A stretch of DNA of 64,000 nucleotides from positions 3,951 to 67,950 of the forward strand of contig WSUB01000190.1 in NCBI GenBank assembly GCA_019633425.1, in the 5' to 3' direction. The stretch comes from Tulasnella sp. 424 (lineage: Eukaryota > Basidiomycota > Agaricomycetes > Cantharellales > Tulasnellaceae). Position 1 is the first letter of the stretch. The number at the start of each line of letters is the position of its first letter. The notes under the pieces were generated by a model. The model ran no database searches. It saw only the letters and a program-made list of their open reading frames with translations, and had not been told where the DNA came from. Position numbers and translations under genes: made by a program. This document shows, one piece after another, positions 28,627-64,000 of the stretch.

Positions 28627-28663
28627 TTAGGCAGAATCCCTTAACAGGCGACTCGCTTTTTGT

Positions 28664-33947: not shown

Positions 33948-33958
33948 GGAGGGGCAAC

Positions 33959-34310
33959 TGTGATGACCCCGTCCTCACATCTTATCTCACTACCACCTTC
34001 ATTTCATTATCTTATCGGAATATTCTACGAGATTCCATAACGTTCCATCCACTCGCTTACGTGTTGCCTCCACCAAGCACGTCATTCTGTCGTTCGTTGC
34101 CTCATGTTGATACACATTCGTTAGTCATCACCTCCACTCTGTACAGTATATTAGTTCGACGGAATGAGGAGAGTTGTTCCTCATTCCGCCTCTTGTCTAC
34201 TCCTTAGTATCAGCATCTCTTCCACCTCTTGACTCTTGATCATTGCCATTGACACCATCGACCTTGAAAGCGCCTCGCCTGACTCCTCGTCTATTGCCTC
34301 GACTCTGACA
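33959..34310 (+). repeat. 3' LTR (352 bp)
   Basis: Starts TGTGATGACC and ends CTGACA, followed by the CCTGG target duplication at 34311-34315. Confidence 0.93.
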
Positions 34311-34463
34311 CCTGGGACGTCAATCCCCTAGCCCAAGCCAAACCTTTTCTCGGTAGTGGTAGGCTCTATCCTGTTCAAGATGCATGGATATGGGTGCTTA
34401 TACTACCTGACTATAAACCCTTGATTTGGTAGGGAGTGCTTGTCTTTCTGTGTTCCAGATTGA

Positions 34464-35661: not shown

Positions 35662-36222
35662 ACTGTCCTCATTTGTCGAAGGCATTGGATCGGTCATTTA
35701 GGCTACGGGCGTTGACGACCTGAGGTAGCCAACGGGTCTGGACGGCTCAACACACCCATAGCTGCCGTTACATAGCAGAACCCATTTGTAAAGTAGTGAG
35801 AGGTTGCTTATCAATCATCTGGACCAAGGCCACACACGACCATTCCAAAATTCTCGGAGGAGATACTGGGGACGCCCACTCCCAAACCACAAGTCAGATG
35901 CTTTTCGTAATCAAAATTTCTGTTCTTCTCGATACATTCTGTTGAATAGTGCGGAGGAATCATATGAGGCAACCTCTTTTGGATAGTTCGACTCCAAGTA
36001 GTTCTGAGCTTATCAAATGCTGCGGCGTGCGCAATGCTCCCACGGTTCTCTCACGTTCCTGAAGTTCCACCACCCCCGCCAACTCGAACCTTTTCTGTGT
36101 TGCGGTGAGCTCTATGCTCTCCAAAATATATGATTCTGAGCGCTTACTTTATCCAGCCTTTATTTTTCCATCCATTTAGTAAGGAACGACTTGACCTTCT
36201 TTGTATTGCAGTGTCGGTTTGA

Positions 36223-37420
36223 ATGACTAACGGAGGTCAGTTGAACGTTAACCGCTTCCCGGAGACTCGTTCATGATCATCTGTTCAGAATATATCGTGT
36301 TCATGGGAAGGGATGGATATGAATGCGAGGAATTCATTCGGGCTATTCACAATATGGCACATGCGGCGGGGAAGACCCGGGACGATGCGTGGATGGCGGA
36401 TTTAGCCTCGACTTGCTTTTCAGGGGAAGCACTCAGATACTACGACAGCCTTGAACCAGACGTACGATATGACTGGACGCTGCTTCGCCGCGCACTGTTG
36501 ACAAAGTACCCTCGGCGGGACAATGACGAGGGTGAGCTTCTGTCAGAGGCATCGAGGTGGGTTAATCGAAACGTAACTGCCTCTTATCTGATTCTACACT
36601 CAACGTGCCATTTTAGAACGTCGCAGGTCTATGTTCCTGCTGCGGTTCTGGGACCGACACTTCAGCCTCGCGTAGGTCGGATCAAAGTCATCGGTGCAAA
36701 CTCAACAGACTTTGAGTACATTGGGGACGAAAATAACTCAATTTCGAGTGGACTTGGAGCCGGAGCGCCCGCAACCGAAGCATCCACTTTCTCTTACGTC
36801 CCAGGCAGCAAACTGTTTGAAATCCAAATCAAGGTGCTAGAGGTTTCCCTTTACTCATATCGGATATTAAAGTGTGACTGTCTTTCAATAGCGCCCTGGT
36901 GAGAAGGATCAAGTATTGGGTGTCCACTGGTACTCACCGGCGCCGTCTACGGCAATCGGTTCTCTCAAGTATGGACATCTCGTCTTCTAATTTTGACGAA
37001 TCTCACACTTCTGCTCGCAGCTTTGCGGCCCTTACAGCCTTCAGGTATGAAGGCTCACATCGTTCAAGTAAGATGACCTGGGGCGGGCCCGGTTGCACGC
37101 GTATCTGGAACATATTGCCAGACAACACACTCTCCCCTCATTTGGAGGAGGGCGCCCGTGAGTGCTGATATACTGGATTAATGGGATTATGAGTGTGTGA
37201 CATAATAATTCGTCTTTAGGTCGGACTCCGCTGCAATTTTTTATGCACCAAAAAGCAGAGCATCCGCGGCATTCAATTGATGTTGCCGCCGACCCGGGCG
37301 CGTTTATGACGAAGTATGGGGACGGATGGAAACTTGTAGTAAGCATTATGTACTGGCGGTAACAAGTCTACTGATAGCGTTGGACCGTAACAGAAACTCG
37401 TGTTCGAGCCGTTGAATTAG
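36223..37420 (+). CDS. GXF protein, cassette 3 second gene (285 aa)
   Basis: Seven exons (13, 268, 217, 77, 137, 119, 27 nt) sum to 858 nt. MTNG is spliced to EYIVFMGRDGYECEEFIRAI. The gag-like module continues with DDAWMADLASTCFSGEALRY and EPDVRYDWTLLRRALL. A linker of about 20 residues leads to domain X: GRIKVIGANSTDFEYIGDEN, YVPGSKLFEIQIK, DQVLGVHWYSPAPSTAIGS, FAALTAFRYEG, TRIWNILPDNTLSPHLEEGA, LQFFMHQKAEHPRHSIDVAA, DGWKLV and the terminal KLVFEPLN. No signal peptide, membrane segment or enzymatic motif. I regard it as a good reference model for the family because every junction has canonical GT/AG ends. Confidence 0.85.
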
Positions 37421-37644
37421 GTTGACTTCGGTCGGCAGAAGGGGCTTGGTCGGTCATCAGTGCGCTGTTGTGTGAGAAGCCCGTCGGGGACCTGAGGAAC
37501 ACATAGCAATCTTGACCGCTCACAACACCCATACTTGCCTTTACCCTCATGACCTACTCCATATAATACCTATTCCAATATTCGTTCCTCTTCTTTCTAT
37601 CACTTATTAGCTACTCTTAAGGGTGCACATTTCCGTGGAACAAG

Positions 37645-40022
37645 ATGTCCGCCATTGATGATATCGTGTTCGATGGAGGGGAAGGACAATGCGAGCGCTT
37701 CATTCGCCTAGTTCGAAAGGCTGCATTTGCGCAAGGGAAACTGGACGACTCGAAGTGGGTAGCGATGTTTGCATCGACATGCTTTGAAGGAAAAGCTCTC
37801 CGATGGTACTCGGCACTCGACCCTGCCACGAAGACAGACTGGAACCTTATGGAGCCAGCGCTCTTGACCGAATTCTCTGACCCAGTGGTGACTAGTCAAG
37901 TAGAAGAGAAAGTGCCGTTTGTTGAGCAGGAGTGAGTCCATGTTGCCTCTCTGTTCTAAGGTTGTGGACCTCCTAAACCCCGAACGCTCTGACTCGTAGA
38001 GGAAGCATTCCTACCCCTGCCGCGGCTCCTCCGCCCCTGCCATCCACAGAAGAAGGGGAATCTTCGAGGCCCCCCTCTCCGACATCATATGAACCATCAT
38101 CTGCACCAGCTGCAGCCCCGCCACCGTCATTTGCACCGGCTGCAGCCCCGCCACCGCCTTCGCCCTTCGAGGAACGACCCCCACCCCCTTCTCGTGAATC
38201 TTCGTTCCAAAGGAGGCCAGAACCACCTCCCCCGCCTCCACCACGTAACAGCGCCTTTGCATCATCATATCAAACCGGAAGTGGTTTCCGTCCTCCCCCT
38301 CGTCATCCATCGGCTAGCGCGTCATCGTCTTCTCAGTCCAGCGGCCCAGGTCCTTCTCTTTACGGCTCATATATCCCCTCAAACAATCCCGTCGCACCCC
38401 CTCCACCTCCACCGCGCAATAGCTCTTTTAACTCTCAGCAATCACAGGGACAACAATGGGAACAAGATGTCCCAAAACCTACTGAGCCGAGGAGGTACGT
38501 CGGATTTACCTTCATCTAATCCTCGTGACAATTTGTTAAAGCGATTCGAACATAGGGAGAACTCAGAACATAGCCGCAGGAATTCGACGGAACACCTTGA
38601 TGGTGAGTCGACCGGCAATCTGTTCAACCGCGAGCGTCGTCCGTACTCGACCAACTCGGGTCCGACGCCGTCGAGTTCCAAACCCACGACGAGAAACCTA
38701 CCTGATAACCCGAATGTCAACTTCTTCGTCGCGCCAGATGGTACCACCTATCAAAATTGGGGCGCAGGTGTATACCAGTCGTCCTGGAACCCAGGCAACG
38801 CTCCAAATAACGCCCCGCCACCACCACCGCCGAATTATTCCGGACGTCCTGAACCTCAGTCGGACCGTCCGCCACCGCCACCACCGCCGAATTACTCCGG
38901 GCGTTCTGAGCCGCAGTCAGATCGTCCGTCGCCGCTTTATTCCGGGCGCCCTGAACCTCAGTCGGACCTTCCGCCGCCGCCACCACCACCACCACGTCGT
39001 GATCCTCAATTTCCACCCCCACCCCCAAGACGCAACCCCACTACCGCTCAGCAGCAGGGACCTCAGTTCCCGAATGCGGGCCCTGTACCGGGCGGTATGC
39101 CGCCTCTCTATACTGGTGGAGGCGGCCCTGGAATTCCCCCTCAGTTTACTGGCGGTAGCGGCTTTCGTGTCCCTCCTCAAAATACTGGAGGCACTTGGCC
39201 CGGGTCACAGCAACAATATGGAACAGGTTACCAAGACCCTCCATCGCCATCGTACTTTGGTGGGACTAATGTGTCTCGGCGTGGGCGGATCCGCGTAATG
39301 GATTCGGCTGGTGGGATGTACTGGGTCCGGCAGTCTTTGAATTGGTTTGGAGGATACAAGCGCACGTCGAAGATTGGGGAAGCTGTCGTTGTTCTCTGGG
39401 ATCCAGTGAACGAGCCTGGAAGGCTGAAATTACTGGTACGTCGAGCAAGGTTTTTTTCCGGAGTGATCTGAAGAGGTAATATCTTCCCAGAGCCCAATTG
39501 GCCAGCAGTCATATATCGGCTTAACATGGGCAACAGTGTCAAGAGGGGCGCTTCCGGCTGTCGGGAAAGGATCAAAGGAGTATGTGACGTTGAAACACGT
39601 CGTGTTACTGAATGCTGAAGTTCTTCTACAACACCTTCAGCCAAGCTGATTTGGCAGCTATCGGCGAACTACCCGGTGGTACTGTTAGCTCAGCCTCCCA
39701 TCGTGAAGGCCCCTCGCAAGCGGCGGTATGGTTCATGAACTCGGATATGAAGTTGGAGGCGCGACTTCCGGGGCCTTACGGCGGTGAGTATATCAAAACC
39801 TTACCTCTCTGGACAAGTCTGATTGATAAATCATTGCAGTGCAATACACCCTGGATGTCGCTGTTGGTTCCGGCACGAAATGGATTTGGGTAGTGAGCGA
39901 TTTCGAGACGTTTGCCCTCTCGAACGTCGGTCAGATCAAGTCGGTACGTTGAATCATATCCAGGGCACAATTTTGTACTTACTGCTTAACCGCTGTAGTG
40001 GTTCGTTTTCGAGCCCATATGA
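37645..40022 (+). CDS. Long GXF protein with Pro-rich linker (673 aa), cassette 3 third gene
   Basis: Seven exons (287, 495, 880, 89, 143, 104, 24 nt) sum to 2022 nt. The gag-like module is at about residues 5-85 (DDIVFDGGEGQCERFIRLVR, SKWVAMFASTC, ALRWYSALDPATKTDW). Then comes a linker of about 400 residues rich in Pro, Ser, Gln and Arg, with runs of 5-8 prolines and repeated PNYSGRPEPQSDRPPP-type units at about 38820-38990. Domain X is at about residues 495-673: GRIRVMDSAGGMYWVRQSL, GLTWATVSRGALPAVGKGS, AAVWFMNSDMKLEARL, WIWVVSDFETFALSNVG, ending WFVFEPI. Intron positions in domain X match those of short members. Polyproline linkers can bind SH3, WW or profilin partners; that role is not shown here. 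The corresponding genes in cassettes 1 and 2 are dead. Confidence 0.85.
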
Positions 40023-42280: not shown

Positions 42281-43288
42281 TTACATAGGTTTGAATCGCA
42301 GGGTCTGGAACCATAATTATCAAGAAGAGCATTCCGGTCAGTCGGGAAACGTGCCAGCAACGGGAAAAGTAGGCAAGCTTACAACAACTTCCCATCCTGC
42401 GCGAGGCTTATCGACGTTCGCCGGGGTGAGGCAAAGTCGGATGAATGAGTTTTCACGTAAAACGAAGTCCAAACCAGGGTTCGCTACGGAAGCAGTTAGC
42501 TCAAAGAGTTCGGTGTGGGCACGTGTGTATAATCGGTTTACCGTCGTCTTCCGTGTGCCAATATGGTAGGATGGAATTATCGTCATAAACCCTCCACATA
42601 ACGTGCTGGGTTGGGCCATTGCAATTCGCCCAAGATCCAACGACCTCATTTGCGGGACTCCTCGTTCCAAAGCTCAAGGAGGCGAAACTAAGTGTGTTGT
42701 GTACAAACGGAATCAGTATTCGCAATAGAGTGTGGCAAGCGAAGGAGAACCCACTTGGGGAATAAGGGCTTCTCGTTCTCTTTGACGGGAGAGAACCAAG
42801 ATGCGGAGAGGTAAGTTGCCTTATTGGTAGGGAATGGATACTTCGAGTACGGGTATCCAAGCCTCGCATTCTGCAACGGCGTTGACGGGTCAGCAAATGA
42901 AATATTTGCGGTCAGCTTCTCTCACCAAAGCCTCGATGGCACCGCAGGTAGTGCCAGGTGGAACATATCGAACAACCAGTGCTTCTGATATTTCGATCGT
43001 AATGGGAAGATTGCCTAGCTTGTCCGCTTCTTTAGGGACGAACCCTAGAACAGTGCCATTTCCGTCTACAGCGACGATCCATCCTGTACGCGGCGGCCCT
43101 TGGAGATCGTCGTCATCAGTAAGATCCATTGTTCTGCCCATGGCGGCTAGAGAGGGTGAAAGGAGGAATCACCAAACCCATAAATTGTACTGGACCATCA
43201 GCAGATGTTCAGAATGTCCCAGGGCATAGCACTTACGAACGGACCGATTGGACGCGTTACTGAGTGGGGATGTAAGAATGTAAGACAT
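42281..43288 (-). CDS. Domain X protein without gag-like module, second copy (219 aa)
   Basis: Six exons sum to 660 nt by comparison with the 45779 copy. The N-terminus is MSYILTSPLSNASNRSV and then an acidic stretch (MDLTDDDDLQGPP). Domain X: TGWIVAVDGNGTVLGFVPKE, LPITIEISEALVVRYVPPGT, YLSASWFSPVKENEKPLFP, FASLSFGTRSPANEVVGSW, NGPTQHVMWRVYDDNSIL, ANPGLDFVLRENSFIRLC, RAGWEVV and the last exon TLRFKPM. Compare GXF proteins: LGVHW, TRIWKVMPDNT, GWKLV, LVFEPLN at the same exon positions. No signal peptide or catalytic motif is visible. It sits in unit 1 of the tandem duplication. Confidence 0.8.
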
Positions 43289-45497
43289 GTTAATTACTAC
43301 GAGGGGGAGGATCTCGGGGAGGAGCTGGAATCTTCGAGGTATGAGGAAGTTAGGACAACACCAAAGCTGGCTTTTAAATACGCGTCTGGGCAAAAGGGAA
43401 TGCCGCCAGGAAGTGGTTGAAAGGATGCAGCACGTCTACCAGCAGGGAGTGGGAATGGATCCATGAGGGAGGACAGCTACATGAACACCGGAAACTGACG
43501 AACTCTGCTCGTTCTCCCGAGTCCGGGTTCTAGCGCGCAGTATGACAGTTCAACAAGAAGCCTCCTACCCTACTACTCATGGTACGTTTAGATAGATAGA
43601 ACGTTCGAAAGATCAGATCGATTTTTATCTGGGTTCGCGTACAGTAAATGAAGGCGAGACTAGAGCCAGTCGAAAGCCCTGCGCTGCGCTCCCCGCGCTA
43701 AGGCTAGCAGTGTTCGTAGAACCAGGCACCCAGTCAAACGGAGCTAATCCATTCAAAGAAATAGCTTATCGCGCATCGCAATGAGGCCAGTAAAGTGCGA
43801 ATCACCAGATGCCCCCGGAGGGAGGAGTTCGTGCTCCAGCCTGCGAGGGCGTGTCCGGTGAAAATGACAGCCGTGTATCACCGGAAGCAAAGACGAAGAT
43901 CGTATGGTTGGAACCCACAATGCTGTGAGTTTATAATCGGAGAGGGCCTCTAAAACGGACAGCCAAACCCGATCCCGGTGACGAATGACTCCCAAGGTGG
44001 CGTTATCCGATTCGAATAGATCAAAGTAATACACAGCTGTCGAGCGAATCAATAAAATGGCATAAAAGAAGATGAGCTGAGACGGGTGTTGGTTTCTTCC
44101 TCCGCCCAGGAAGGGGAAGAGAAAGGTCGATTGGCTGGTAATCTTAGCGTAACGCGAAACAAGTCGCTTGGAGACACGAGCGGCTATCATCCTTGCGACG
44201 GAAATAGCTTAAGATCGAACGCAATCGTTGAAAAGAAGGTCTTCCGCGATCCATAGCGTAGAACAAGCTAATCAAATTGCGCAACAAAGATGTCAGCTAG
44301 GAGGGTCAGAAACGCACCAGTCGCGTAAGATATTTTCATCAACTTGCATCGATGCACGGGGTCCCCATGTATGGCAAAGCGAATGCGGCACACGGTCAGT
44401 TCTAGTAACCAGATAAAGGGGTAAGCAGTTACTCGAGTCCGTATGGGGATGGACCACATACCTCTCGTCGCGGGTCTCGTCGCCGACACTCTCCAGGATG
44501 AGTTGATCCATAAGCGGAGACTGAGGCCATCATCCAATAGAATAGGAGGCTCCTGTATATGATTACTGATTAATAGCTCCTAATATCACCATGAGGCTGC
44601 TTTCTGCGACGTCTTGGAATCACTGACGAAGTGTGGTGGTGGTGAAGGGCAGACCTCAGTCCAGCCGGAAATTCCGGCGATCAAAGGTCCGGCTTTCAAC
44701 AAGCCGTGGGAAGATCAGAACTTGGGGCGGCGATCCTCAGAAAGCCGTCCACGCGTCTCAACTCAATGTCCTTCACTCACATGCCGATGTCTTGTACGTA
44801 CAAGGAACTCTAGAGAGGAGCCCGCAAGGCTTCTTACTCTAGTGCCACACTGTAGGTAGGCTGTGCCCAAGGCGTGACCGGGATCCACCCGCGAACCCGA
44901 GGAAGGTCTGACTTAGCTGGAACCGTTTTTCCTTCTATTCGTGGGACTCCATTCGGGTAGAGAATACTTATAACAGGACAGGAAAATTGGAGCTATAGCG
45001 CCTGCCAACCTGGAGGGCCCAGGCTTGTGCAATCGTTCGCGTTCTCAGACCTGAGAGTTTGCAGCGCTCTCCAGTCTTAACCACGACGCAAGGGCGCCAC
45101 GCCCAGGTCATGACCTCTTTGACTCGTGCTTTGAGGAGCTTCGAGATAGACCTCCCGCTCACAAAGAAACTAACGACATGGCGTTCCAGCAAGCCGGATC
45201 TGACCTTGAATCGTTTCGTGTCAAAGTCGGAACCAACCCTCCCAGCTAGGACTGAATTGCAACACCCATAACTCCAAAAAGAAAGTGTTTTGAGAAGTCT
45301 TAGGCTGGTGCTAACAGTGAGGCCGTCAACCCTCGCGGAGATCCGCAGCAATATGAAGCAGGAAGTTGGACGGAGCGCCTTCCTGTGCAGAACCTGCGCT
45401 GGGAAAGGAAAGAGTCCCAAGACCTGGGCCCGGAGCTCAACGACGAGGTGACCGCGAGGCCCTGGGACAAGCGCAATCTGGCTTCAAGCACAGGCTT
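43289..45497. other. Non-coding part of duplication unit 1
   Basis: 2.2 kb shared with 46790-49310. Only short frames that are not conserved between the two units occur, so I call no gene. A GGAGGAGTTCGTGCTCC-type hairpin lies at about 43820-43860. Confidence 0.5.
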
Positions 45498-45510
45498 TGC
45501 CATCTTGTTT

Positions 45511-48500
45511 GGTGAATTCCATCAAAGCTGCATACACTCCACCTCTGCCATAGGGGCTGGTGTCGTCCAAACGAATGCTGCCTGAAATTGCCCCAGCTCT
45601 ATCAGGTTCATGTGTTGATATCTGACCGAGGGTTTGCAGGTGTCTTAGCTGGGCGATGCCCGGCGGAGCAGTTCCAACAATCATGGCCCATGACAAGTGC
45701 AGAACGAGAAGAGGATTATTGAGCCATGACTACTGAAATTCATATTCTGATTGAAGAGTGTACAGGTATATAGCTGGATTATATGGGTCTGAATTGCAAG
45801 GTCTGGGTCGCGAACATTGAGGAGCGTCGTCCGATCAGTCGGGAGCGGCCAACAACGAAAGAAGTAGGCAAGCTTACAATAACTTCCCATCCTGCGCGAG
45901 GCTTATCCACGTCTGTCGGAGTAAGGCAAAGTCGGATGAACGAGTTCTCACGCAAAACAAAATTCAAACCGGGGTTCGCTATAGAAGCAGTTAGCTCGAA
46001 GAGCTGGGCGTGGGCATGTGTGCAGAATCGGTTTACCGTCGTCCTCAGTGTGCCAGTAAGATCGGATGGTATTATCCTCATAAACTCTCCACATCACGTG
46101 CTGGGTTGGGCCATTGCAACTCGTCCAAGATCCAACAATCTCATTCGTGGAACTGCTCGTGCCCAAATTCAGGGAGGCGAAACTACAGTGTGATTTGTAC
46201 AACAGAATCAGTATTCGCAATAGAGACTGGCTAGCGGAAGAGGACTCACTTGGGAAACAAGGGCTTCTCGTTCTCTTTGACCGGAGAGAACCAAGATGCG
46301 GAGAGGTAAGATAACCTATTGGTAGGGAAGGGATACTTCGAGTGCGGGTATCCAGGCCTAGCATTCTGCAACGGCGTTGACAGGTTAGCAAATAAAAGAA
46401 TGAAAGGTCTGTAGTCAGCTTTTCTCACTAAAGCCTCAATAGCACCGCAGGTGGTGCCAGGTGGAACATATCGAACAACCAGTGCTTCTGCTATCTCGAT
46501 TGTGATGGGAAGATTGCCTAGCTTGTCCGCTTCCTTAGGGACGAACCCTAGAACGGTGCCATTTCCGTCTACAGCGACGATCCACCCGATACGCGCCGGT
46601 CCTCGGAGATCGTCATCATCAGTAAGATCCAGTGATCTGCCCTCAGCGGCTATAGAGGGTGTATGGAGGGACCGCCCAAATCCATAAATTGTACTCGATC
46701 ATGAGCAGACGCCCAGAATGTCTCATGGCATAGCACTTACGAACAAGCCGATTGGAAGCATTACTGACTGGAGATGTAAAGCCCGACATGGTAATTTGCT
46801 ACGAGCTGGGAAGATATCGGTGAGGAGTTGAAATCTTTGAGGTATGGGGAAGTTAAGACGACACAAACGCTGGCTTTTAAAGGCGCATCTGGGTCAAGAG
46901 CACGCCAATGGGAAGCGGCTGGAAGGATGCAGCATGTCCACCAGCAGGGAGTGGTAATAGAACCATCCGGGAGGACAGCCGCATGAACACCGGAAAGTGC
47001 CGAGCTCTGCCCTTTCTTCTGACTCAAGGTTGTAGCTCACAGCACGAAAGTTCGACAAGCAGCACTCTACCCTACTCGGGGCACGTTTAGATGGATATAA
47101 CGATCGACGGACCAGAGAGATTCTTTTGGGGGATTGCATACAGCAAATAAAAGTGAGGCCAAGACCAGCCCTGCGACGCGCTCCCCGCACTGGGGCTGAC
47201 AGTTGTTCGTAGAAGCAGGAACCCAATAGAATGGATCTTATCCATTCAAAGAAAGAGCTTATCGGGCATAGCCATGGGGCCAGTCAGGTGCGAATCACCA
47301 GATGCCCTCGAGGGAGGAGTTCGTGCTCCAGCCTTCGAGGACTTGTCTAATGAGAATGACAGCCATATACCAACGGAAGCAAAAGCAACGATGGTATGGT
47401 CCGAACCCATAATGCTGTGCGTCTAAATCGCAGAAGGTCCCTAAACTGACAGCCAAACCCGATTCCAGCGACGAATGCCTCCCAAGGTAGCCTTATCCAA
47501 CAAAGTGATACCCAGGTGTCGAGAGAACCGACAGCATTACATAAACGAAGATGAGCTGAGACCGATGTTGGTTTTTCGTCTTTCCCCCGGGAAGGGATTT
47601 ACTGGTAATCTTGGCCTAACGCGAAACAGTTCAGGTGGCTTGGAGACACGAGGGTCTATCATCCTCGTGAAGGAAAATTTTGAAGGTTGAACGCATCGAT
47701 GAAAAAAGATCTTCTGTGATCCGTTGCGTAGAACAAACGAATTAAATTGCGCAACAAAGATGTGGAGGATCGAACACGCACCGGTCGCTTAAGACCCTCT
47801 CATCACGTTGCATCGATGCACGGGATCCTGATGTATGTGGCCATCATTCGATTGAGCGAGATGTTGAACGGTTTCCTAAATGGAAAACTACCCCGTGGAC
47901 GACAAAGCGGACGTAGCACACGCCCAGTATGAGGAGATAACTAAAGTATCAAGCAATTATTATGGTGATTCGTGTCCAGATGGGGATGTACAACGTACCT
48001 CTCGTCGTTGATCTCGTCCTCGCCACGCTCCAACATGAGCAGGTCTATGGGCGGAGACTGATAGAACGATAGTCTCCTGTATAGAATAATTAGTTACGAG
48101 CTCATCGGTAAGCTTTGGGGCTGCTCTCAGGGATATCTGGGAATTATCGACGAAGGGTGGTGGTGGTGAAGGGCAGACCTCAGTCCAGCCGGAAATCCTG
48201 GCGATCAAGTTGCGGCATCCAACAACACGTGGGAAGGCTACCGGGCGCCGCAACTCATGAACGGTGACGACCGCAGAAAGCCGATGCAACTCGGGTTCTT
48301 CCGATGTATCACTTACATGCCGAGGCAATGAACACACAAGGAACTCTAACGAGGATGTTGCAAGGATTAGTACTCGAGTACCGCTGTCTAATTCTAGGTG
48401 GGCTGGCTCGAGCTAAACCAAACAAGGGACCCGAGTCACCGTTCATTATACAATAGAAGCACGAAACGGGTTCCTGCTTAATTACTCGGTCGTAGTTTTA

Positions 48501-52119: not shown

Positions 52120-54297
52120 ATGCTCCTGCCAACACTCGCATTCCTCTCAACACTTCTCGCCAGTTCGCAAGCCGCGACGGGTGGCCAAGTTTGTGCATCC
52201 GTGAGTTTTCCAAACGGGTCCGCTTCCCTGAATGGACCCTCGGTGGTTCTAACTTCTCCCGACACCCAACGTTGACCACTGGCCATCCCAACCCTCCCCA
52301 ACAGAATCTCTGCGTCAACGCTATTGTCGAAGGGCAAACAGTAACCTGTGAGTATCCCTTTCCCTTCGAATATGCCGGGTATACGTTTCAGGCACTTCCG
52401 GGCCATTGAGGGGAGAATTCGCGGACGTGGGATTGGCTGATGCCGCCCATGGCACATACGTGTGCCGTGATCTCATTCTTTGCCAAGTGCCAAGAAGCGG
52501 CACCTCCGTTTCGATCGTATGGCGGACCTTCCATCCGCAGCAACCATCGAAGAAACCCCTCCACCGTTTATCTTCGTTGTCGCATTTTCTGTTTATCCCC
52601 TCTTTTTTGGGTTATGGCGGAAATCACGTGCGCTGACCTCTTCGATGTCGTCATGCTGTGCAACACGCACACACACAACAGATCAACTCGTCTCGCAAAT
52701 TGGATTCGAGCAGTTAGGATGGATGGCTATCGGATTTGGATCGCAGATGCCCGACACCCCCATTGTCGTTACTTGGCCCAACGATGATGGCTCCATTACG
52801 CTCTCCCAACGGCAAGCTCCTGCGCATATCATGCCCACCGTCGTCGCGAATCCGACACAAAAGGCTACTCTAGCTTGGGACAACTCTATCGTACGCTCCA
52901 TTTTTAGTGCTGATTATCTCCCGGGCATCGCCGAACCCTGACCCTGCCTGACTATTTCCAGCTCGCCACGAATTCGACTGCCATCGCATTTAAGCAATCG
53001 GTTCCGACTTCATCTCTCAACGCCGTACCTCTCATTTGGGCATACTCAAGTCAACGGCCTCCTTCAAGTGCCGTCGATGCTCCTCTCGTGCAACATGACA
53101 ACATGGGCACGTTCTCCATCGACCTGACACAACCCGTCAACGCCCTCCCCACCGGAACACCCGCCATCACCACCGTCATCGGAACGAGCACCCGTGTCAT
53201 CTCTCCAACTCCTACCGGATCCTCATCGAATAGCGGTAATGCAAGTCCCGACGTCGTACTCACTGCATCGCAAAAGAAGATCCGGACGCACGGAATTTTG
53301 ATGAGCGTTGGGTTCTTGGTGCTGCTCCCACTAGGTAGGAGGGAGAGTACAAGGGGTCTCTACGTTTGCTGATCGTTTCTCCTTTTATTTCAAGGGGTTT
53401 TCATTGCCCGGTTCTCGAGAACGATCCCTTTCCTCAAAAACAAGTGGTTCACGGCTCACTGGTTCATCCAGTTCGTCGTATCCAGCCCCATTATCTTTGC
53501 CGGATGGGCCCTCGGATATCAGTTCGCTGGGGATGTACATTTCCGAGATAATCACACTGTGAGCACTTTCGAGATTCCCTCGCCCAGGTACTACAATTCT
53601 GACCCAACCCTCTTTCCATCCTCCAGCGCGCTGGATTAGCCCTCCTCATCCTCTACCTCGTCCAACTGGCCTGGGGTACAATCATTCACTTCTTCAAGCC
53701 GGCTCGCAAACCCCTCCCACCTCTCGCCACCACCACCGCTTCCACGCCCGATGCCGATCCCGAAAAGTCCGCACCTGGCTCGCACCCCCGTCTGCCCACC
53801 GACCAATCCGTCGTCTCGCACCTCCAATCTTCGGCGTCAAGCGACGCTCACGCGACTACCACCGTCGCTCACTCTACCATGGGACTCACGAATAGAGGAA
53901 GGACCCCTATGACCGAACCTTCGGCGGGAGGAACAATGATACCCGCTATCACGGGTCGCCCACCTCAGAATTACGGACACGCGATTCTGGGTTTGGCTAT
54001 TATTGGACTGGCGTTTTATAACGTTCATGAGGGGTATAGTCACGAGTGGCCAAAAGTGTTTGGAACGCCAGTTGGCAGGGTGGCGTTTTTGAGGAGTTTA
54101 CGGGCTTGGTGGATTTCGTGGGTTATCGTAAGTTTCCCTTTCCGTTATCCGAACTTGAGAGAGCGAAGACCTAATCGTGGTCTGCTCTTTTATGATAGAT
54201 CATCCCGTGCGTCTACCTCATTGGTCTGACGTTGTTGCCGAGGCAGTGGAAGCAGGAAACGGACGCTCGGAGGACTTTACCGCAGGGCTCGCAATAG
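52120..54297 (+). CDS. DOMON plus cytochrome b561 membrane protein
   Basis: CyDOM proteins pass electrons across a membrane using a cytochrome b561 core and an extracellular DOMON domain. Start at 52120 with signal peptide MLLPTLAFLSTLLASSQAA. The DOMON part includes GWMAIGFGSQMPDTPIVVTW, SITLSQRQAPAHIMP and AIAFKQSVPTSS. A Ser/Thr/Pro stretch follows, then the b561 core: RTHGILMSVGFLVLLPLG, AHWFIQF, FRDNHT and NYGHAILGLAIIGLA, whose His residues fit the four haem ligands. A long hydrophilic loop rich in Ser/Pro lies between the third and fourth helices of the core. The protein ends in two more hydrophobic segments (ISWVI..., VYLIGLTLL). Stop TAG at 54295. A decayed relative lies at 63249-64000. 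Confidence 0.85.
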
Positions 54298-55201: not shown

Positions 55202-57072
55202 CTAGGGTATGGCGTCGAGATTAATGCCAAGTGCGGTTAGTGCTTGCTTGCTTGCTGTCTCACGAGCTCCCTGCTTGGTGCTTGCGACTGCGGTGTGTAT
55301 GCCGATGCCGCGGCCATTGGAAGAGTTCGTCACTGATGTATTTATCGCGGCCTCAATTAGAATACCTTTGTCTCGGTGATTCGGGAAGAACGGTGGGAGA
55401 GCGTACCAGTGAGCGACGATGTCCAAGTTTCATTATGACGAGGACCTTGTGGAAAAGTGGCTTCTAGGAGGGACACCATTCCTTGCTGCATCATATTGTG
55501 AAGGTGAATGAAATAGCGAGTGTTGGGGGCTTTGGGGGTGATGGGCGAGGTTGGTTCGTTTTGGCTCTCCGGTGCTGGGAGGGATGGAACAGAATTAGGC
55601 GATTGGAAGGAGTGTTCCTCTGGCAGCTCACGGATTCCCTCACCTCCTGGTACAATACTCTTTTGTTTTTTTAACTAAATTCAAGGGTAGAAACAAAGTC
55701 AGCTCGGTGGGTCCTCGAAATATGGTTGTTGCAGCCGGAAGCACTCACTCCGAATTCGACATCACGGATTGTGGGACGCATCCGAGGTTCACGAGCCCAG
55801 CATCGACGCATCAGAGCCCAAGTTGGGTCATTCTGAGGTAACGCTGGATGCTCCGCGAGCGTGGGGTGTTCTTCCCGAACAATCCGAAGAATGATTCTTA
55901 CGGGTGCGTTGATTTGAAAAAAGGGAGGGCTCCCACTCATTACCTTATAAGTTACCGAACCGTAAGTCTGCTGCGCACGCCATATTGTAAAGACATACCG
56001 CTAGCATTAGTCCACCAAAGGCGTACACATCGCTTTCTAAACTCGGCTTGGCATTCGGTTCCAATAATAGCTCAGGTGCCATATATCTGTGACTGCCTTT
56101 AGCTTCGTAGCCAGTAGTCAAGCCAGTCGAAGCATCAGATTCCTGAATGACCCGACTTAAACCAAAATCGGATAATGCTGCCTCGCAAAAACCGTTCATG
56201 AGGACATTCTCCGGTTTGATGTCGCCATGGCAGATGGGAGGCGATTGAGAATGGAGAAAAGCAAGCCCACGCGCAACCTGTACTAACTAGAAGACTTGGA
56301 GTGAGCACGAAGGGAAAAAAAGGTTGGTGGGAAACCCTACCGGTTCCAGTTTTTCGGGCCGAGAGAGGTCGGGATTGTTGTTAAGATATTTCACTAAATC
56401 TCCGTTCTCACACCATTCGCTGACGAGACAAGGTTTGGGCTGGGTCCTGAACCCCAAAAAAGGTTGGACATTTGGGTGACGGAGGCGAGCCCAAACATCC
56501 GCCTCACGTTTCAGGCTCTGCATTCCCGATATAGTGATGATGGTTATTGCGAGTTTGAAGCAGATTTTGTAAGGATTACTCACCTTTTCCCTTCTCTGCT
56601 GTAAGGCGATAGCGTTAGGCAAGAATGACATTGATGTTGGCCGGATCGGCTTCAGTGTTTTGACGGCAACTTCCGTAAGAGTGCCATCGGGACTTCTCCA
56701 TATGCCCCGAAAAATGTCTGCATAGCCACCGGAGAGGAGAGGAGTACCTGGCGCTACCAGGTTTCCTTGAAGTTCTCCGTCGTCCTCCTCGAATGAAGCG
56801 CCGGGTTGGATTGGCGGTTCATCGACCATCCCCAATGAACTGGGATTGCCCGCAACATCGTCTGATTCCACTCTCGTTCCTTTCTGTATCGGATTAGAAA
56901 AAGAGAGTCGTGAGTAATCATGGGGCGGTTAAAATGGTAACCGTACCTCAAGATCTTCCCCAAGTGAATATGAATCACCCTGGCCGAAGTCAAGCTCTTC
57001 CTGAATAACACTCTTTCTCGTGAAAGGATTTATGCTTGGAAAATATTCCGCCATCTCGATAACCTCAGACAT
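55202..57072 (-). CDS. TKL-like protein kinase with C-terminal dsRNA-binding domain (505 aa), copy 1
   Basis: Seven exons (126, 300, 177, 288, 195, 268, 164 nt) sum to 1518 nt in one frame. The kinase domain is at about residues 90-360: glycine loop LSGGYADIFRG, VAVK (Lys117), Glu147 in LKREADVW, catalytic loop HGDIKPENVLM (Asp223, Asn228), DFG (Asp241), APE (271-273). The loop has HGD rather than HRD, so it is a non-RD kinase with all catalytic residues. A Ser/Pro-rich link leads to a dsRBD at about 414-500: YFIHLHNMMQQG, the signature GPRHNETW, then STKQGARETASKQALTAL, matching the family pattern GP-H and K-x-A-x-x-x-A-x-x-x-AL. In metazoa PKR joins the same modules in reverse order. Activation by dsRNA is inference. 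Confidence 0.87.
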
Positions 57073-57549: not shown

Positions 57550-59270
57550 CCTCGCACGGTCCCGGGCTCTGCCAGAATATAGTTAAGTACGATTAGTGCT
57601 TGTTTACTTGCTTCCTCACGAGCTACCAGCATGGTGTTTCCTTTTCCAGCGTACGTGCCAATGCGGGCGCCATCGGTCACTGAGGTACATATCGCGGCCT
57701 CAGTTAGACTATCTTTACTTCGGTGATTCGGAAAGAACGGTGTGAGAGCTTACAATATATAATCGTTCTCCAAGTTTCGTGATTATGAGGACCTTCTGGA
57801 TAAGTTTCATGAGTGTAGGACACCGTTCCTTGCATCCTTAAAGTGTGAAGGAGCTTGGAGTAGCGAGGGTCGGTGGCATTGGGGGCGATGGGTGGGGTTG
57901 ATTCATTTGGGAATCTCGGATGCTGGGAGGGATGGAACGGATTAGGCGGTTGGAAGGAGTGTTCCGCTGGCAACCCTCACCTCCTGAGGTGATATTTAGT
58001 ATTCCCTTTTGTTTTTTCAGCTAAATTCAAGAGTGTCAGCTCGGTAGGTCCTCGAAATATGGTTGTTGCAGCCGGAAGCACTAACTCCGAATTCGACATC
58101 ACGGATTGTGGGACGCATCCGAGGTTCACGAGCCCAGCATCGACGCATCAGAACCCAAGTTGGGTCATTCTGGCGTAACGTTGGATGCTCCGCGGGCGTG
58201 GGGTGCTCATCCCGAACAATCCGAAGAATGATTCTTACGGGTGCGTTGATTTGAGAAAAGGGTGGGCTCTCATTACCTTATACGTAACCAAGCCCTAAGT
58301 CCGCCGCCCACGCCATATTTTAAAGACATACCGCTAGCGTTAGTCCACCAAAGACGTACACATCGGTCTCTAACCCCAGCTTGGCATTTTGTTCCAGCTA
58401 TAGCTCAGGGGCCATATATCTCTGACTGCCTTTAGCTCCCCGCTAGTAGTCCAGCCAGTTGAAGCATCGGATTCCTGAATGACCCGACTTAAGCCAAAAT
58501 CGGATAATGTTGCCTCGCACAAACCGTTCATGAGGATATTCTCCGGTTTGATGTCGCCATGGCAGATGGGAGGTGACTGAGCGGGAAGCAATGCAAGCCC
58601 GCGCGCGGCCTGTACTAACTAGAGGACCTAGAGTAAGCACGAAAAAAAGAGATTGGTGGAAAAACCAACCGGTTCCAGTTTTTCGGACCGAGAGAGGTTG
58701 GGATTGTTGTCAAGATAGCTCACCAAATCTCCGTTCTCACACCACTGGCTGACGAGGCAATGTTTGGGCTGGGTCCTGAACCCCAAGAAAGGTTGTATAT
58801 TTGGGTGACGGAGGCGAGCCCAAACAGCGACTTCACGTTTCAGGCTCTGCATTCTAGATATCGTAGTAATGGTTATTGCGAGTGTGAGGCAGATTTTGAA
58901 AGGATTACCCACCTTTTCCCTTCTCTGCTGTGAGGCGATAGCGTCAGGCAGGAATGACATTGATGTTGGCCGGATCGGCTTCAGTGTTTTGACGGCAACT
59001 TCCGTTAGAGTACCAGCGGGACTTCTCCATATGCCCCAAACAATGTTTGCATAGCCACCGGAGAGAAGAGGAGTGCCTGGTGCTACCAGGTTTCCTTGAA
59101 GTTCTCCGTCGTCCTCCAGGAAAGAAGCGCCGGGTTGGATTGACGGTTCATTGACCATCCCGAACGAACTGGGATTCCCTGCAACAATCAACTCTCCTTT
59201 TTTCTTCGGATTAGAAGAAGAGAGTCTGAGTACTAACCGTGTGCCAGTCACCAGCTGGTCTCCGGGGAAC
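57550..59270 (-). pseudogene. Kinase-dsRBD gene, copy 2, decayed
   Basis: The kinase N-lobe is well preserved (LSGGYANIVWG, VAVKTLKPIRP, HGDIKPENILM, DFGLSRV). However, exon 1 is missing (homology ends near 59270) and the acceptor before exon 2 is lost. A 1-nt loss near 58435-58440 shifts the frame in the activation segment, and a TAG replaces a Leu codon shortly after. The dsRBD part can still be read (YSKLLHTLRMQG, EGPHNHETW, AREEASKQALIVL) but is not joined to an intact kinase. Several independent lesions make a functional product unlikely. Confidence 0.82.
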
Positions 59271-60921
59271 CATGACGGCGTTTCGGATGTCCCTCAGGAC
59301 CCAGAGCTTAACCCCGAATGAGGGCTGCCAAGGCGTCATTTCCGGGGGGTTGCGGCCGGTGGAGGGGTTGCTGTATAGAATTATCCAGTCCCTTCCTTGA
59401 CTCTATTTCGAAAATTCGACTGTTTACTCAGCGTTAAAGCATTACCGCCGCCGGCGGGCCGCTGCGCCGCATCAACAGGAAGCCGACTGTGTGCCGAGTC
59501 TAGGTATTCTCCGGCCTGCTAGCATGGGAGACGCACCAGCTTCGTTTTAAGCTATCGTGTCGAGGTACCCTCCGAGCTCAAATATACATCCCCAGAGGGC
59601 ATGATATTATCCAACCTCGTGCATATAAACAAAAGGTAATAGAGAGGTTGCGAATTAGAGCATGCTCCAAATTCGACGTGCGAACTTCACCCTTTCACGG
59701 CCGTGCTCCAAACCTTCGCCCGTTGAGACATTACGTGTTCGCCCAATTACCTCGATGTAATGGATGGCAATGAATCAGTTTCGCTTGTATACGACCTGCA
59801 TGACATTTAGGATGTGAATACAGAGGGCAGATTCGAAGCAACGCCTGGATTATAAATACGGTATGCTGGTATTCGCACGTCGAATTTGGAGCATGCTCTA
59901 ATTCGCAACCTCCCTAATATATGTACTTGCAACGTAGCTGGAGGAGCTACAAGGGGGTTGCTCGTCGCGATGCCTCGACGATGGATCGTAAGTGATTATG
60001 TCTTTGTTGCCCCGATCATCCCATCCCCACAAAGGGCAACCTCCACACGAAGGCATCGCCGGTCGCCGAGACCCTCCTCCTTCGCTGTCGAAGTCAGTAG
60101 ACCGTGTGTGAAGCCTATAACCCCTTGGCAAGAAAGGTGACCTACTGTGCAGCTCAGTTGGACTCGTGATCGGGTTTCGATTCAAAGCAAGGTTTATAAA
60201 TCAAACACACATTATTGGCGAGGAGAGCTTGTCACCACGAACGCTAGATCATCGTGGCATATACTCGGATGCATGTGTGCTAGTTTTTCTATCTATTGGA
60301 TGCTCATCAGAATGATTTAGGGAGTGTAACTAGTGGTAGGGAGGTCCGGCTCTGTAAAATCACACCAACCGTGGGACGTAGATGAACGGGGTTTTGATTT
60401 TACGAGGCGAGTGGATAGGGCTTGACGAGCAACCCAATTTTGTACGTGTGCCTACAGAACACCGGCTATTAGTAGGTTATTTTTGATTGTCTGATTCCCG
60501 CACCGAGTCCTGAGAGACCGCGACAATGTTAGAGCACCGATTTTAACCTGATTACTGCAACCACTTCCCGGATTATGGTACCAAGATCCCGTACCTTCTA
60601 CTCTCCAGGAATGCAGTAATACTGTCAGAGAGTATTTAGACCTTCTAATTTCTCGCCAACTCCGCGAATCCCCGAAGTGATACTCAGGTTTTTTCATTGA
60701 GAAGGCATCCAAGTTACAACACGGTCAACATTACAAGGAAAAAAAGGGAACATAATTGTATTCAAGACCGTAAGAGCTATTGAGTAAAGAGAAATGTTTG
60801 CCGCAACAGCACACCGGATCCAGGATTGCTTATTCCGGCGGAGAAATGACACCTTTAGCTATCAAGACGAGCATGGCGGCTTCGTTCTTAGCGTATATCT
60901 TTCTGCGGTGTAGTCCCATAC
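59271..60921. other. Intergenic region between kinase copies 2 and 3
   Basis: 1.65 kb. It holds the inverted-repeat element at 59644-59912 and the duplicated kinase 3' flank at 60470-60710. No gene is supported. Confidence 0.55.
59644..59912. mobile_element. MITE-like element with perfect 41-bp terminal inverted repeats
   Basis: 59644-59684 (GAGGTTGCGAATTAGAGCAT...) is the exact reverse complement of 59872-59912; similarity extends a few bases further out with mismatches. The arms enclose 187 bp with no coding frame, total 269 bp. Each arm contains the palindrome GCATGC. This fits a non-autonomous DNA transposon, but a target duplication is not clear (possibly TA). A large hairpin of other origin is the alternative. 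Confidence 0.65.
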
Positions 60922-62932
60922 TCATATATACATCCCCAGTCCCTTGATCTGAAGAATGCGAGCGGTCAGTTCATTATATGAGTTAAACTTCGCAATTAAA
61001 ATACCCTGAATTTTCGTCATCCAGCCGGGCATCGTGTCACAACCCGTATTCCAAGTTTCGCACAGTGGGTCGGATTGGTAGGTAGTCCGACAAAACTGGT
61101 GCCACATGTTCCAGTATACTGAGCTAGGTGCTGTTGGAGGATCCATGCCAAACGCCCCAAGTTCGGCAAGTGCGAGTTTGCTTGCTGCGTTACGAGCGTT
61201 AACTTTGCTGGATCCTGCTCCTAAGTACGTTCCCTGGACCGTCCTATCGCGACCACCAAGCACTGGGGTAAGTATTATCAGCTCCATTAGAATACGGTGA
61301 CTCTGGTGAGTCCGAAACACTTTGGAGGGTCTTACAGGTGATTGACGCTCTCCAAATTTTCCCATCAGAATGATAGTCGATGCGTTCTAGCTGCCCTCGC
61401 CCCTGTGGATGTTTCAGGAGCTGCGTCCAAAAATCTCGTATGTCGGTCAGTTTCGGCAAGATGGGCGTTTCGCTAGCAACTCACTGGGTGTCTGAACGCC
61501 CAGGAAAGGGCCAAGTCGTTCCTTTTGTTTCTCCAGCTAAATTAAAACCAGGGTCATCGCACTGCGTCCTAAAAAGATCGGCATCCCTAAAGCCCCTGAC
61601 CTCGACCGTTACATCGCTCATTATAGGGCGCACCAGGGGTTTGCGGGCCCAGCAGTGAAGCATCAGAGACCAAAGTGGGTCATCTTGATCTAAGGTTGGA
61701 TGCTCCGCAGGCCTGGGGTGTTCTTCCTTGACTATGCGATATATGATTCTTGCGGATGCGTCGATTTTGGAAAAGGGAGGGCCCCCACTCATCACCTTAT
61801 ACGTAACCAAACCCTAAATCTGCTGCCCAACGCCACAGTTAAAGACATACCGCTAGCGTTAGTCCTCCAAAGGCGTACACATCAGTTTCTAACCCCAGTT
61901 TGGCATTTGTCTCTAACAATAGCTCAGGGGCCATATATCTCTGAGTGCCTTGAGCTCCGTCGCTAGTAGTCAAGCCAGTCGAAGCATCAGATTCCCGAAT
62001 GACCCGACTTAAACCAAAATCGGATAATGCTGCCTTGCAAACACCGTTCATGAGGACATTCTCCGGTTTGATGTCACCATGACAGATAGGAGGTGACTGA
62101 GAGTGAAGAAAGGCAAGCCCACACGCAGCTTGGACTAACTAGAAGACTTGGAGTGAGCACGAAAAAAAAGGGTTGGTGGAAAAACCCACCGGTTCCAGTT
62201 TTTCGGGCCGAGAGAGGTTGGGATTGTTGGTAAGATAGTTCGCCAAATTTCCGTTCTCACACCATTGGCTGATGAGACAAGGGTCGGGCTGGGTCCTGAA
62301 CCCCAAGAGAGGTTGGATATTTGGGTGACGGAGGCGGGACCAAACAGCGACTTCACGTTTCAGCCTCTGCATCCCAGATATAGTAGCGAGGGTTATGGTG
62401 AGTTTGAGACAAATTATGTAAGGATTATTCACCTTTTCCCTTCTCTGCTGAGCGGCGATAGCGTTAGGCAGGGATGAAATTGATGTTGGCCGGATCGGCT
62501 TCAGTGTTTTGACGGCAACTTCCGTTAGAGTGCCATCTGGACTTCTCCATATGCCTCGAAAAATGTTTGCGTATCCACCGGAGAGGAGAGGAGTACCTGG
62601 TGCTACCAGGTTTCCTTGAAGTTCTCCGTCGTCCTCCTCGAATGAAGCGCCGGATTGGATTGAGGGTTCATCGACCATCCCCAACGGACTGGGATTCCCT
62701 GTAACATCGTCTGATCCAACTCTCTTTTGTTCCTGTATCGGATTAGAAAAAGAGAGTCGTGAGTATTAATCGTGTGCCAGTCACCTGGAAGCAAGTCTCC
62801 GGCGGTTAAAGATGGTGACCGGACCTCAAAATCTTCCGCAAGGGAATATAAATCATCCTGGCCGAAATCGAGCCCTCCCTGAATAGCGGCGTTTCTGTTG
62901 AAAGGATTCATGCTTGGAGATGATTCCACCAT
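60922..62932 (-). CDS. TKL-like protein kinase with C-terminal dsRNA-binding domain (519 aa), copy 3
   Basis: Eight exons (108, 300, 177, 288, 195, 52, 99, 341 nt) sum to 1560 nt. The five kinase exons have the same lengths as copy 1 except the first: the ATG of copy 1 is GTG here, so the start moves to the next ATG (62932). Kinase landmarks: LSGGYANIFRG, VAVKTLKPIRP, HGDIKPENVLM, DFGLSRVIRES, RYMAPELLL. The dsRBD is at about residues 374-460: FWTQLLKHPQGRGQLERIDY, KIWRASI, GAGSSKVNARNAASKLALAE. This keeps the basic C-terminal helix pattern but lacks GP-H. It is strongly diverged from the dsRBD of copy 1 although the kin­ase domains are close. An extra tail of about 60 residues follows, without a recognised domain. 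Confidence 0.85.
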
Positions 62933-63248
62933 CTCGATAACCTCAGACACAGCGGGATACACGACGGGGAGGGGCAAGGTGCAAGAGTCCGCATCTCGTT
63001 TGCACCTGGGCTGGTCTCACGGTTCACGCCAAGACTCATGCCACGAACATAGCCAGACCTGCGTTTCATGTCATTCTCCTTTTCCCCAATGCGGCTACTG
63101 AAAATGAAGCAAGCTTGAGCAGCACGGAAATTTCTAGGCCAATGCTTTCTGGCTTCAAAGCTTCGCCCATATGCCGTGGTAAGTATCACGTGGGTTGTGG
63201 AGGGACGCAAACTTGCGGGGTCTAAAATCGGAGCTCACCTCCAGTGAT
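62933..63248. other. Upstream flank of kinase copy 3
   Basis: Contains sequence related to the upstream flank of copy 1. No other feature is supported. Confidence 0.45.
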
Positions 63249-64000
63249 CTGTGAGTATTCTCTCATTTCGAATCCCGTTCATAAATCTCGGGAATTTCTA
63301 AGCAACTGGGAGAAGACTTGGCGGACGTGGGATTGTAATTGTCCGGCATTACTAGGCGGGTGCCCATAGCGAGGCCTGGCACACTCGTGCGCCCTGATCT
63401 CAATCTTTGCCAAGTGCCAAGAAGCAGCACCGTCATTCGACTGTGTGGCCGTTCCCATCCATTCTTAGCGAGAGAACCTCCATAGTTATCGCACGTTCTG
63501 TTTATTCCTCTTTTTGCGCGCCGCCACAAGTCACGTGTGCTGACCTGTTCAATGTCGTCATACTATGCAACAACAACAACACCACCACCAAATCAACTGC
63601 TCTCGCAACTTGGATTGGAAGCAATTGGGATGAACGGCTATCGGATTTCGATCGCAGATGCCCGACACTCCCATAATCGTCACCTGGCCCAACGACGATG
63701 GTTCCATTACGCTCTCCCAATGGCAGGCCCCTGCGCATATAATGCCGACCGTCGTCGCAAACCCGGCACAAAAGGCTACTCCAGCTTGGGACAACTCTAT
63801 CGTACGCTTCATTTTTAGTGCTAATTATCTCTCGGGCATCGCCGAACCCTGACCCTGCCTGACTATTTCCAGCTTGCCACGAATTCGACTGCCATGGCAT
63901 TTAAGCAGTCGGTTCCGACTTCATCTCTCAACGCCGTACCTCTGATCTGGGCATACTCGAGTCAACCACCCCCCAAGCGCCGTTGATGCTCCTCTCGTGC
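63249..64000 (+). pseudogene. Decayed copy of the DOMON-cytochrome b561 gene, cut by the right edge
   Basis: Similar to 52360-53090. Recognisable parts are MPDTPIIVTWPNDDGSITLS and QAPAHIMPTVVANP. The first two exons (signal peptide) are absent. One extra nucleotide just upstream of the exon for MPDTP (around 63625-63640) puts it out of frame, and the last 40 bases have further indels relative to the intact gene. Whether a b561 part follows lies outside the window. Confidence 0.75.

What the first reader, a model, noticed from the sequence alone, without database searches (positions are those of the whole stretch)
55202..57072. Protein kinase fused to a C-terminal double-stranded-RNA-binding domain in a fungus
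A complete TKL-like kinase domain is followed in the same seven-exon frame by a convincing dsRBD (GPRHNETW and STKQGARETASKQAL). Vertebrate PKR joins dsRBDs to a kinase in the opposite order and acts as a viral dsRNA sensor. A dsRNA-responsive kinase would be a notable addition to fungal antiviral biology, because such fungi carry many dsRNA mycoviruses. Domain identity is read from the sequence; the sensing role is inference.
Basis: partly seen in the sequence, partly recalled or inferred. Interest (0 to 1): 0.9.

Follow-up and report, generated by a model that had tools for sequence, protein, structure and literature searches.

The report
Fungal kinase fused to dsRNA-binding domain
A Tulasnella fungus carries a gene, repeated in tandem, that joins a RIP-like protein kinase to a domain of the kind that grips double-stranded RNA, an arrangement that could let the cell react to RNA viruses much as our own PKR does, though RNA binding and virus sensing have not been tested.

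Summary
The fusion is real, with one splice site corrected. On the minus strand, seven exons (57072-55202) encode 494 residues: a TKL-type kinase with its catalytic motifs, a linker and a C-terminal dsRBD. This aligns the domain gaplessly with two 63-64% identical public proteins and makes dsrm its only Pfam hit (weak, below cut-off). A profile of eight such domains finds PKR, TRBP and ADAR2 dsRBDs in the PDB (best 5e-8; 0.0012 with six). The kinase's last helix and the first half of the dsRBD share one exon, so this is not two neighbouring genes.

The window holds two more copies: B (frameshifted) and C (intact kinase, one good and one doubtful dsRBD out of frame). Two other kinases carry such a tail: FRC04_007761 of Tulasnella sp. 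424, and an uninterrupted 506-residue ORF on a 1793-nt contig of unnamed source. The four dsRBD-bearing rows of my tree fall in one six-member clade (moderate support).

The kinase is nearest to RIPK3/CTR1/B-raf among solved structures, not to eIF2-alpha kinases, and the domain order is opposite to PKR: a PKR-like arrangement, not a PKR. dsRNA sensing is plausible but untested; the structure models are low-confidence.

The parts
55202..57072 (-). Copy A: complete kinase-dsRBD gene, 494 aa, exons 57072-56947, 56883-56584, 56517-56341, 56286-55999, 55943-55749, 55674-55407, 55332-55202
   Evidence: all introns GT-AG, one open frame; junction 1 agrees with the public model, junctions 2-5 with aligned relatives, junction 6 with P0121/P0122
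55749..56883 (-). Kinase domain of copy A (exons 2-5): glycine loop LSGGYADIF, VAVK lysine, HGD catalytic loop (no arginine before the Asp), DFG, APE
   Evidence: motifs read from the sequence
55407..55674 (-). Exon 6: end of the kinase's last helix (LKKQKS, aligned with ELKTHK / ELKSRN / ELKKEL of relatives), linker, and first half of the dsRBD, in one open exon
   Evidence: alignment
55202..55332 (-). Exon 7: second half of the dsRBD (with the last helix STKQGARETASKQAL) and stop codon
55333..55406 (-). Corrected intron 6 (74 nt, phase 1) inside the dsRBD; an intron is predicted at the same place in copy B and in the first dsRBD of copy C
   Evidence: CTAAT branch-like motif
57560..59200 (-). 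Copy B: degenerate. Exon 1 not recognisable, frameshift in exon 4, and the dsRBD (57976-57754 and 57679-57560) open but not in the frame of the start of exon 6
61601..62950 (-). Copy C kinase: exons 1-5 open throughout; the first codon, ATG in copy A, is GTG here, with an in-frame ATG six codons on
60830..61447 (-). Copy C tail: one dsRBD (C1) and a second, doubtful dsRBD-like stretch (C2) in tandem, in a frame other than that of the C kinase
   Evidence: C1 dsrm E=0.019, C2 no dsrm match; left out of the profile C1 scores 31.1 bits, C2 only 8.9 against 6.4 for shuffles

Best explanation
Copy A encodes one polypeptide: a TKL/RIPK-like kinase with its catalytic motifs, a linker of about 45 residues and one C-terminal dsRBD (shown from sequence and homology). 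Inferred mechanism: the dsRBD binds the A-form helix of long dsRNA, as from replicating mycoviruses or convergent host transcripts. Several molecules on one duplex bring kinase domains together, which trans-autophosphorylate and signal onward. It thus works like PKR, or like RIPK3 gathered by a nucleic-acid sensor (recalled), with the sensor on the opposite side of the kinase from PKR. The same kinase family in this genome is also joined to a NACHT domain (P0017), so the kinase looks like a shared signalling part plugged into different sensor modules.
For: Kinase Pfam E=5e-35; catalytic motifs present. dsRBD: dsrm is the only Pfam family for copies A and B and the best for C1, E=0.0012 for relative P0121; the eight-sequence profile hits PKR dsRBD1 at 5.3e-8, then TRBP, Loquacious and ADAR2, 39 of 41 hits being dsRBD proteins by my reading. 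One exon carries the kinase end and the dsRBD start. Kinase followed by dsRBD in three of three window copies, in P0013 (annotated, same genome) and in P0008, an uninterrupted 506-aa ORF on a 1793-nt contig, probably cDNA. The four dsRBD-bearing rows of a 21-row tree fall in one six-row clade (91/94). Kinase dN/dS 0.40 for A/C, 320 codons. In A/B the dsRBD's nonsynonymous sites (34%) differ more than its own intron (16%), p=0.004, as expected of a recognition domain under changing pressure. Kinase-NACHT relative P0017. Tulasnella strains carry dsRNA partitiviruses (PMC9098641, passages).
Against: No RNA-binding, kinase or expression data. Copy A's dsrm score is below Pfam's cut-off (17.2 against 23). 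Without P0008 and P0013 the PDB profile hit falls to 0.0012, and 10 of its 14 hits are an FMN-binding protein at 0.09-0.9. One of the three basic residues of the last-helix motif is replaced (KQGAR) and the usual first-helix glutamate is absent (consensus recalled). P0121/P0122 are called as 86- and 78-aa ORFs, longest contigs 1924 and 2010 nt, so this dsRBD may also exist apart from a kinase. P0005, a clade member, has no dsRBD in its called ORF. The dsRBD label is not significantly clustered on the tree (3 changes; 111 of 500 shuffles as low). Structure models are weak, with helix 1 predicted as strand. A search with the P0008 dsRBD found no further fusion (1 of 261 candidates, itself). dsRBD dN against dS alone is not significant (p=0.51).
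Confidence: 0.5

Rival explanations
1. The dsRBD has become a protein-protein module, as in the third domain of TRBP/Loquacious, that docks the kinase on Dicer-like or other dsRBD proteins or dimerises it; RNA binding is weak or lost.
For: Incomplete RNA-contact motifs in several members: B lacks the first two basic residues, C1, C2 and P0008 lack the GPxH loop, P0013 ends its motif with Thr. Among the best PDB profile hits are the third dsRBDs of TRBP and Loquacious, known as protein binders (role recalled).
Against: The lineage of copy A (A, P0121, P0122) keeps GPRH and K-x-x-A-R; the top hit is PKR dsRBD1, an RNA binder (role recalled).
Confidence: 0.23
2. The dsRBD binds cellular structured RNA and tethers the kinase to ribonucleoprotein substrates; there is no virus sensing.
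For: dsRBDs do not read sequence (general knowledge). Other kinases of this family carry unrelated tails, such as a P21-Rho-binding domain in P0025, which suggests targeting as a general use of the tail.
Against: Tandem copies, loss of frame in two of three copies and fast dsRBD change look more like conflict genes than housekeeping.
Confidence: 0.17
3. The array is a decaying tandem family with no present function; copy A is intact by chance or recency.
For: Copies B and C are broken; the public model of copy A is truncated.
Against: Copy A is open over 494 codons with six good introns; A/C kinase dN/dS is 0.40; relatives outside the array have the fused tail in frame (P0013, P0008).
Confidence: 0.08
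4. Two adjacent genes, a kinase gene and a small dsRBD gene, wrongly joined.
For: P0121/P0122 are short called ORFs with a very similar dsRBD.
Against: Exon 6 holds both the end of the kinase's last helix and the start of the dsRBD in one frame; P0008 joins both in one uninterrupted ORF and P0013 in one annotated protein.
Confidence: 0.02

Closest known systems
PKR (EIF2AK2), vertebrate dsRNA-activated eIF2-alpha kinase
   Same: dsRBD plus protein kinase in one chain; its dsRBD1 is the best solved match of the family profile (5.3e-8)
   Different: Two N-terminal dsRBDs before an eIF2-alpha kinase in PKR; here one C-terminal dsRBD after a TKL-type kinase; different kingdom; activation untested
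RIPK3/RIPK2/RIPK1 (TKL group, animals)
   Same: Nearest solved kinase domains (RIPK3 2.9e-29); a kinase joined to an interaction or sensing tail
   Different: Tails are RHIM, CARD or death domains (recalled), not dsRBD; the HGD catalytic loop here has no Arg before the Asp
Related fungal TKL kinases: kinase-NACHT (P0017, FRC04_006968, Tulasnella sp. 424) and double-kinase proteins (P0003 of Tulasnella sp. 427; P0002 of unnamed source)
   Same: Same kinase family at about 45-48% identity
   Different: C-terminal partners are NACHT/NPHP3_N or a second kinase; P0025 has a PBD
FslK fungal kinases related to tyrosine kinases (PMC3937382, passages)
   Same: Expanded kinases of the TK/TKL kind in Agaricomycetes
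   Different: Membership not tested; the terms dsRNA and double-stranded do not occur in that paper's main text

Membership tests
Double-stranded-RNA-binding domain (dsrm, PF00035) | Sequence match to the family | tested here: met
   dsrm is the only Pfam family for A and B and the best for C1, all sub-threshold; C2 has no dsrm match; profile of eight finds PDB dsRBDs at 5.3e-8, profile of six at 0.0012
Double-stranded-RNA-binding domain (dsrm, PF00035) | alpha-beta-beta-beta-alpha fold | tested here: inconclusive
Double-stranded-RNA-binding domain (dsrm, PF00035) | Binds dsRNA | not testable with these tools
   GPRH and K-x-x-A-R kept in copy A; needs a binding assay
TKL-group protein kinase | Kinase fold with Lys, HxD, DFG and APE motifs, nearest to TKL kinases | tested here: met
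   PF07714 5e-35; the best 60 of 1273 PDB hits are RIPK3, RIPK2, RIPK1, CTR1 and B-raf; motifs
PKR / eIF2-alpha kinase | Kinase domain of the eIF2-alpha kinase family | tested here: not met
   None of the best 60 PDB hits shown (of 1273) is an eIF2-alpha kinase; best-hit test only, no tree with PKR built
PKR / eIF2-alpha kinase | N-terminal dsRBDs before the kinase | tested here: not met
   dsRBD is C-terminal
PKR / eIF2-alpha kinase | Activated by dsRNA, phosphorylates eIF2-alpha | not testable with these tools
   Needs a kinase assay

The most novel reading that the evidence does not exclude
Tulasnella fungi have independently evolved a dsRNA-activated protein kinase: a RIPK-like kinase with a C-terminal dsRBD, encoded in a tandem, fast-changing array. 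It senses mycoviral dsRNA and belongs to a modular immune-kinase repertoire in which the same kinase is also wired to NACHT. It would be a fungal, convergent counterpart of PKR, beside RNA silencing.
Probability: 0.4. Interest if true: 0.9.

Novelty: new variant of a known kind. Interest (0 to 1): 0.66.

Why it matters
A recent review calls PKR vertebrate-specific and says fungi rely only on GCN2 among eIF2-alpha kinases (PMC12394161, passages). My ten paper searches listed no paper whose title or shown abstract opening describes a fungal kinase with a dsRBD; the library holds open-licence papers only, and some lists were capped. If dsRNA switches this kinase on, mushroom-forming fungi would have a protein-signalling branch of antiviral defence, with a direct test in Tulasnella strains that naturally carry dsRNA partitiviruses. 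It would also show that nature joined a dsRBD to a kinase more than once, in both orders.

Tried and rejected
My own first model used that junction too, and a wrong exon 4 start; the protein searches were run with it. The idea of two adjacent genes was rejected on exon 6 and P0008/P0013. Structure prediction gave low-confidence models: P0121 pLDDT 68, the other four models 42-46; P0008 dsRBD region mostly under 50. Foldseek found nothing significant, its top row being a phage coat protein at E=0.82. VIA-align absences are not read as evidence. The P0008-dsRBD search returned only itself among 261 candidates. dN/dS of the dsRBD (A/B 1.33, 76 codons) is not significantly above 1 (p=0.51); the A/B linker is 0.43 and the A/B kinase 0.40. 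Only the contrasts of dsRBD nonsynonymous change with introns and with the kinase are significant, with counts rounded, sites treated as independent, B a broken copy, and five tests chosen by me. tRNA scan of the window: none.

The domain scan with my dsRBD profile covered the 122 proteins then held. It found the domain in 4: P0008, P0013, P0121 and P0122, all of which were in the profile. Of the 3090 proteins that passed only the best 120 were listed and could be scanned. In the window, all eight dsRBD pieces found and all kinase matches lie in the three copies (copies A, B and C were in the profile or the query). The tree holds 21 rows, several cut to the kinase. Dropped beforehand from P0001-P0029: P0001 (same gene as copy A), P0002-P0004, P0006 and P0023-P0027 (several kinases in one chain, or fragments); also copy B (broken), and P0030-P0120 were not used. 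Of the clade's six rows, P0005 and P0011 bear no dsRBD in their called proteins; P0011's public model runs out of frame after the DVYAFGG motif (my reading), so its true C-terminus is unknown. The clade's support (91/94) is below the tool's starred level, and the shuffle control does not show the label to be clustered (111 of 500 as low).

Full report
What is there. The finding lies on the minus strand of a window that matches Tulasnella sp. 424: the best public protein, FRC04_004055 (P0001), is 99% identical over the 59% of my first model that it covers. That public model is 314 aa and ends by reading into intron 4. The gene in fact continues. Seven exons at 57072-56947, 56883-56584, 56517-56341, 56286-55999, 55943-55749, 55674-55407 and 55332-55202, with GT-AG introns of 54-74 nt, encode 494 aa. 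With the acceptor at 55333 the domain loses the extra residues and aligns without gaps to two public proteins, P0121 and P0122, at 63-64% identity.

Is it one gene? Junction 1 agrees with the public model, junctions 2-5 with aligned relatives and junction 6 with P0121/P0122. The most telling is exon 6: its first residues (LKKQKS) complete the last helix of the kinase, aligned with ELKTHK, ELKSRN and ELKKEL in P0005, P0013 and P0008, and the same open exon runs through the linker into the first half of the dsRBD. Two other proteins carry the same order. P0013 (FRC04_007761, same genome, a different and longer contig) is annotated as kinase plus tail. P0008 is an uninterrupted 506-aa ORF on a 1793-nt contig of unnamed source; since copy A has six introns, this is probably cDNA (inference).

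RNA contacts. In copy A the loop before the second strand is GPRH and the last helix begins K-x-x-A-R, against the recalled consensus GPxH and KKxAK. Two of three basic positions are kept, which allows but does not show RNA binding. B, P0008, P0013, C1 and C2 each depart in one or the other motif.

The kinase. It has the glycine loop, VAVK lysine, DFG and APE, with HGD in place of HRD. Among solved structures RIPK3 is best (2.9e-29), then CTR1, B-raf, RIPK2 and RIPK1; no eIF2-alpha kinase is among the 60 shown of 1273.

The array. Copy B (59200-57560) has no recognisable exon 1 and a frameshift in exon 4, and its dsRBD is open in a different frame. Copy C (62950-60830) has an open kinase whose first codon is GTG, followed by one clear and one doubtful dsRBD out of frame with the kinase. 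Kinase exons 2-4 are 87-91% identical among the three copies, with A/C dN/dS of 0.40 over 320 codons and A/B also 0.40. The tails behave differently. A and C are only about 50% identical in exons 6 and 7. Between A and B, exons 6 and 7 (76% and 70%) are less alike than the intron between them (84%). In the dsRBD about 59 of 172 nonsynonymous sites differ, against 12 of 74 intron sites (p=0.004) and 48 of 703 nonsynonymous kinase sites (p about 1e-18); nonsynonymous against synonymous is not significant (p=0.51), and the A/B linker is conserved (0.43). Copy B is broken and the sites are not independent, so I read this as a hint of diversifying change in the dsRBD, no more.

Family. In a tree of 21 kinase rows the four dsRBD-bearing rows (A, C, P0013, P0008) sit in one clade of six (91/94, not at the tool's starred level), with P0005 and P0011. 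P0011's public model runs out of frame before its tail, so only P0005 argues for a member without the dsRBD. One gain at the base with one loss fits. The tree's own control does not establish it: three label changes, 111 of 500 shuffles as low. Relatives outside the clade carry other partners: P0017 of the same genome has NPHP3_N/NACHT behind the kinase, P0025 a PBD, P0002 and P0003 a second kinase. Dyrka and colleagues list PKinase in their table of fungal NLR domains (PMC4986451, one passage). This makes a sensor or targeting role for the dsRBD more likely than a chance attachment.

How it most likely works (inference). dsRNA gathers several molecules, kinases phosphorylate each other, and the signal goes on to unknown substrates. 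Tulasnella strains carry dsRNA partitiviruses (PMC9098641, passages), so a ligand is at hand. Against this stand weak or incomplete RNA-contact motifs, no experimental data, and the chance that the domain binds proteins or host RNA.

Known or new. A review holds that PKR is vertebrate-specific and fungi use only GCN2 (PMC12394161, passages). Ten searches of an open-licence library listed no paper whose title or shown abstract opening describes a fungal dsRBD kinase; most subscription papers and preprints were not covered and some lists were capped. It is not a PKR by kinase family (best-hit test) or by order, but it has the same two working parts. I rate it a new variant of a known kind.

Noticed in passing
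28275-34258: Ty3/Gypsy-type retrotransposon: end repeats 98% alike over the 300 nt compared (28275-28574 and 33959-34258), with gag, RNase H, integrase and a chromodomain spread over several ORFs; not every ORF was scanned.
   Followed up: partly
19304-37817: A repeated family of genes or elements in up to six copies, 62-86% alike to the reference copies, with the retrotransposon lying inside its span; three of its ORFs gave no Pfam match.
   Followed up: partly
52450-53369 and 63377-63919: A DOMON/CDH-cytochrome gene lies just downstream of the kinase array, and a 91%-alike stretch of it recurs on the far side of the array, so the duplicated block may be larger than the kinase genes.
   Followed up: no
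59637-59684 and 59872-59919: Inverted repeat, arms 48 nt, 96% complementary, 187 nt apart, between copies B and C; looks like a small transposable element.
   Followed up: no
42353-46679: Duplicated gene block about 3.5 kb apart, 86-89% alike, without Pfam matches in the four ORFs scanned.
   Followed up: partly
P0017 (FRC04_006968, not in the window): The same kinase family is fused to an NPHP3_N/NACHT domain in the same genome: an NLR-like protein (public model partial) with a TKL kinase in front.
   Followed up: partly
P0008 residues 350-369 (not in the window): Between kinase and dsRBD, P0008 has a glycine-rich hydrophobic stretch (GQVVGAILGTLVAYSLA), predicted as helix at low confidence, that could be a membrane segment; copy A's linker lacks it.
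   Followed up: no
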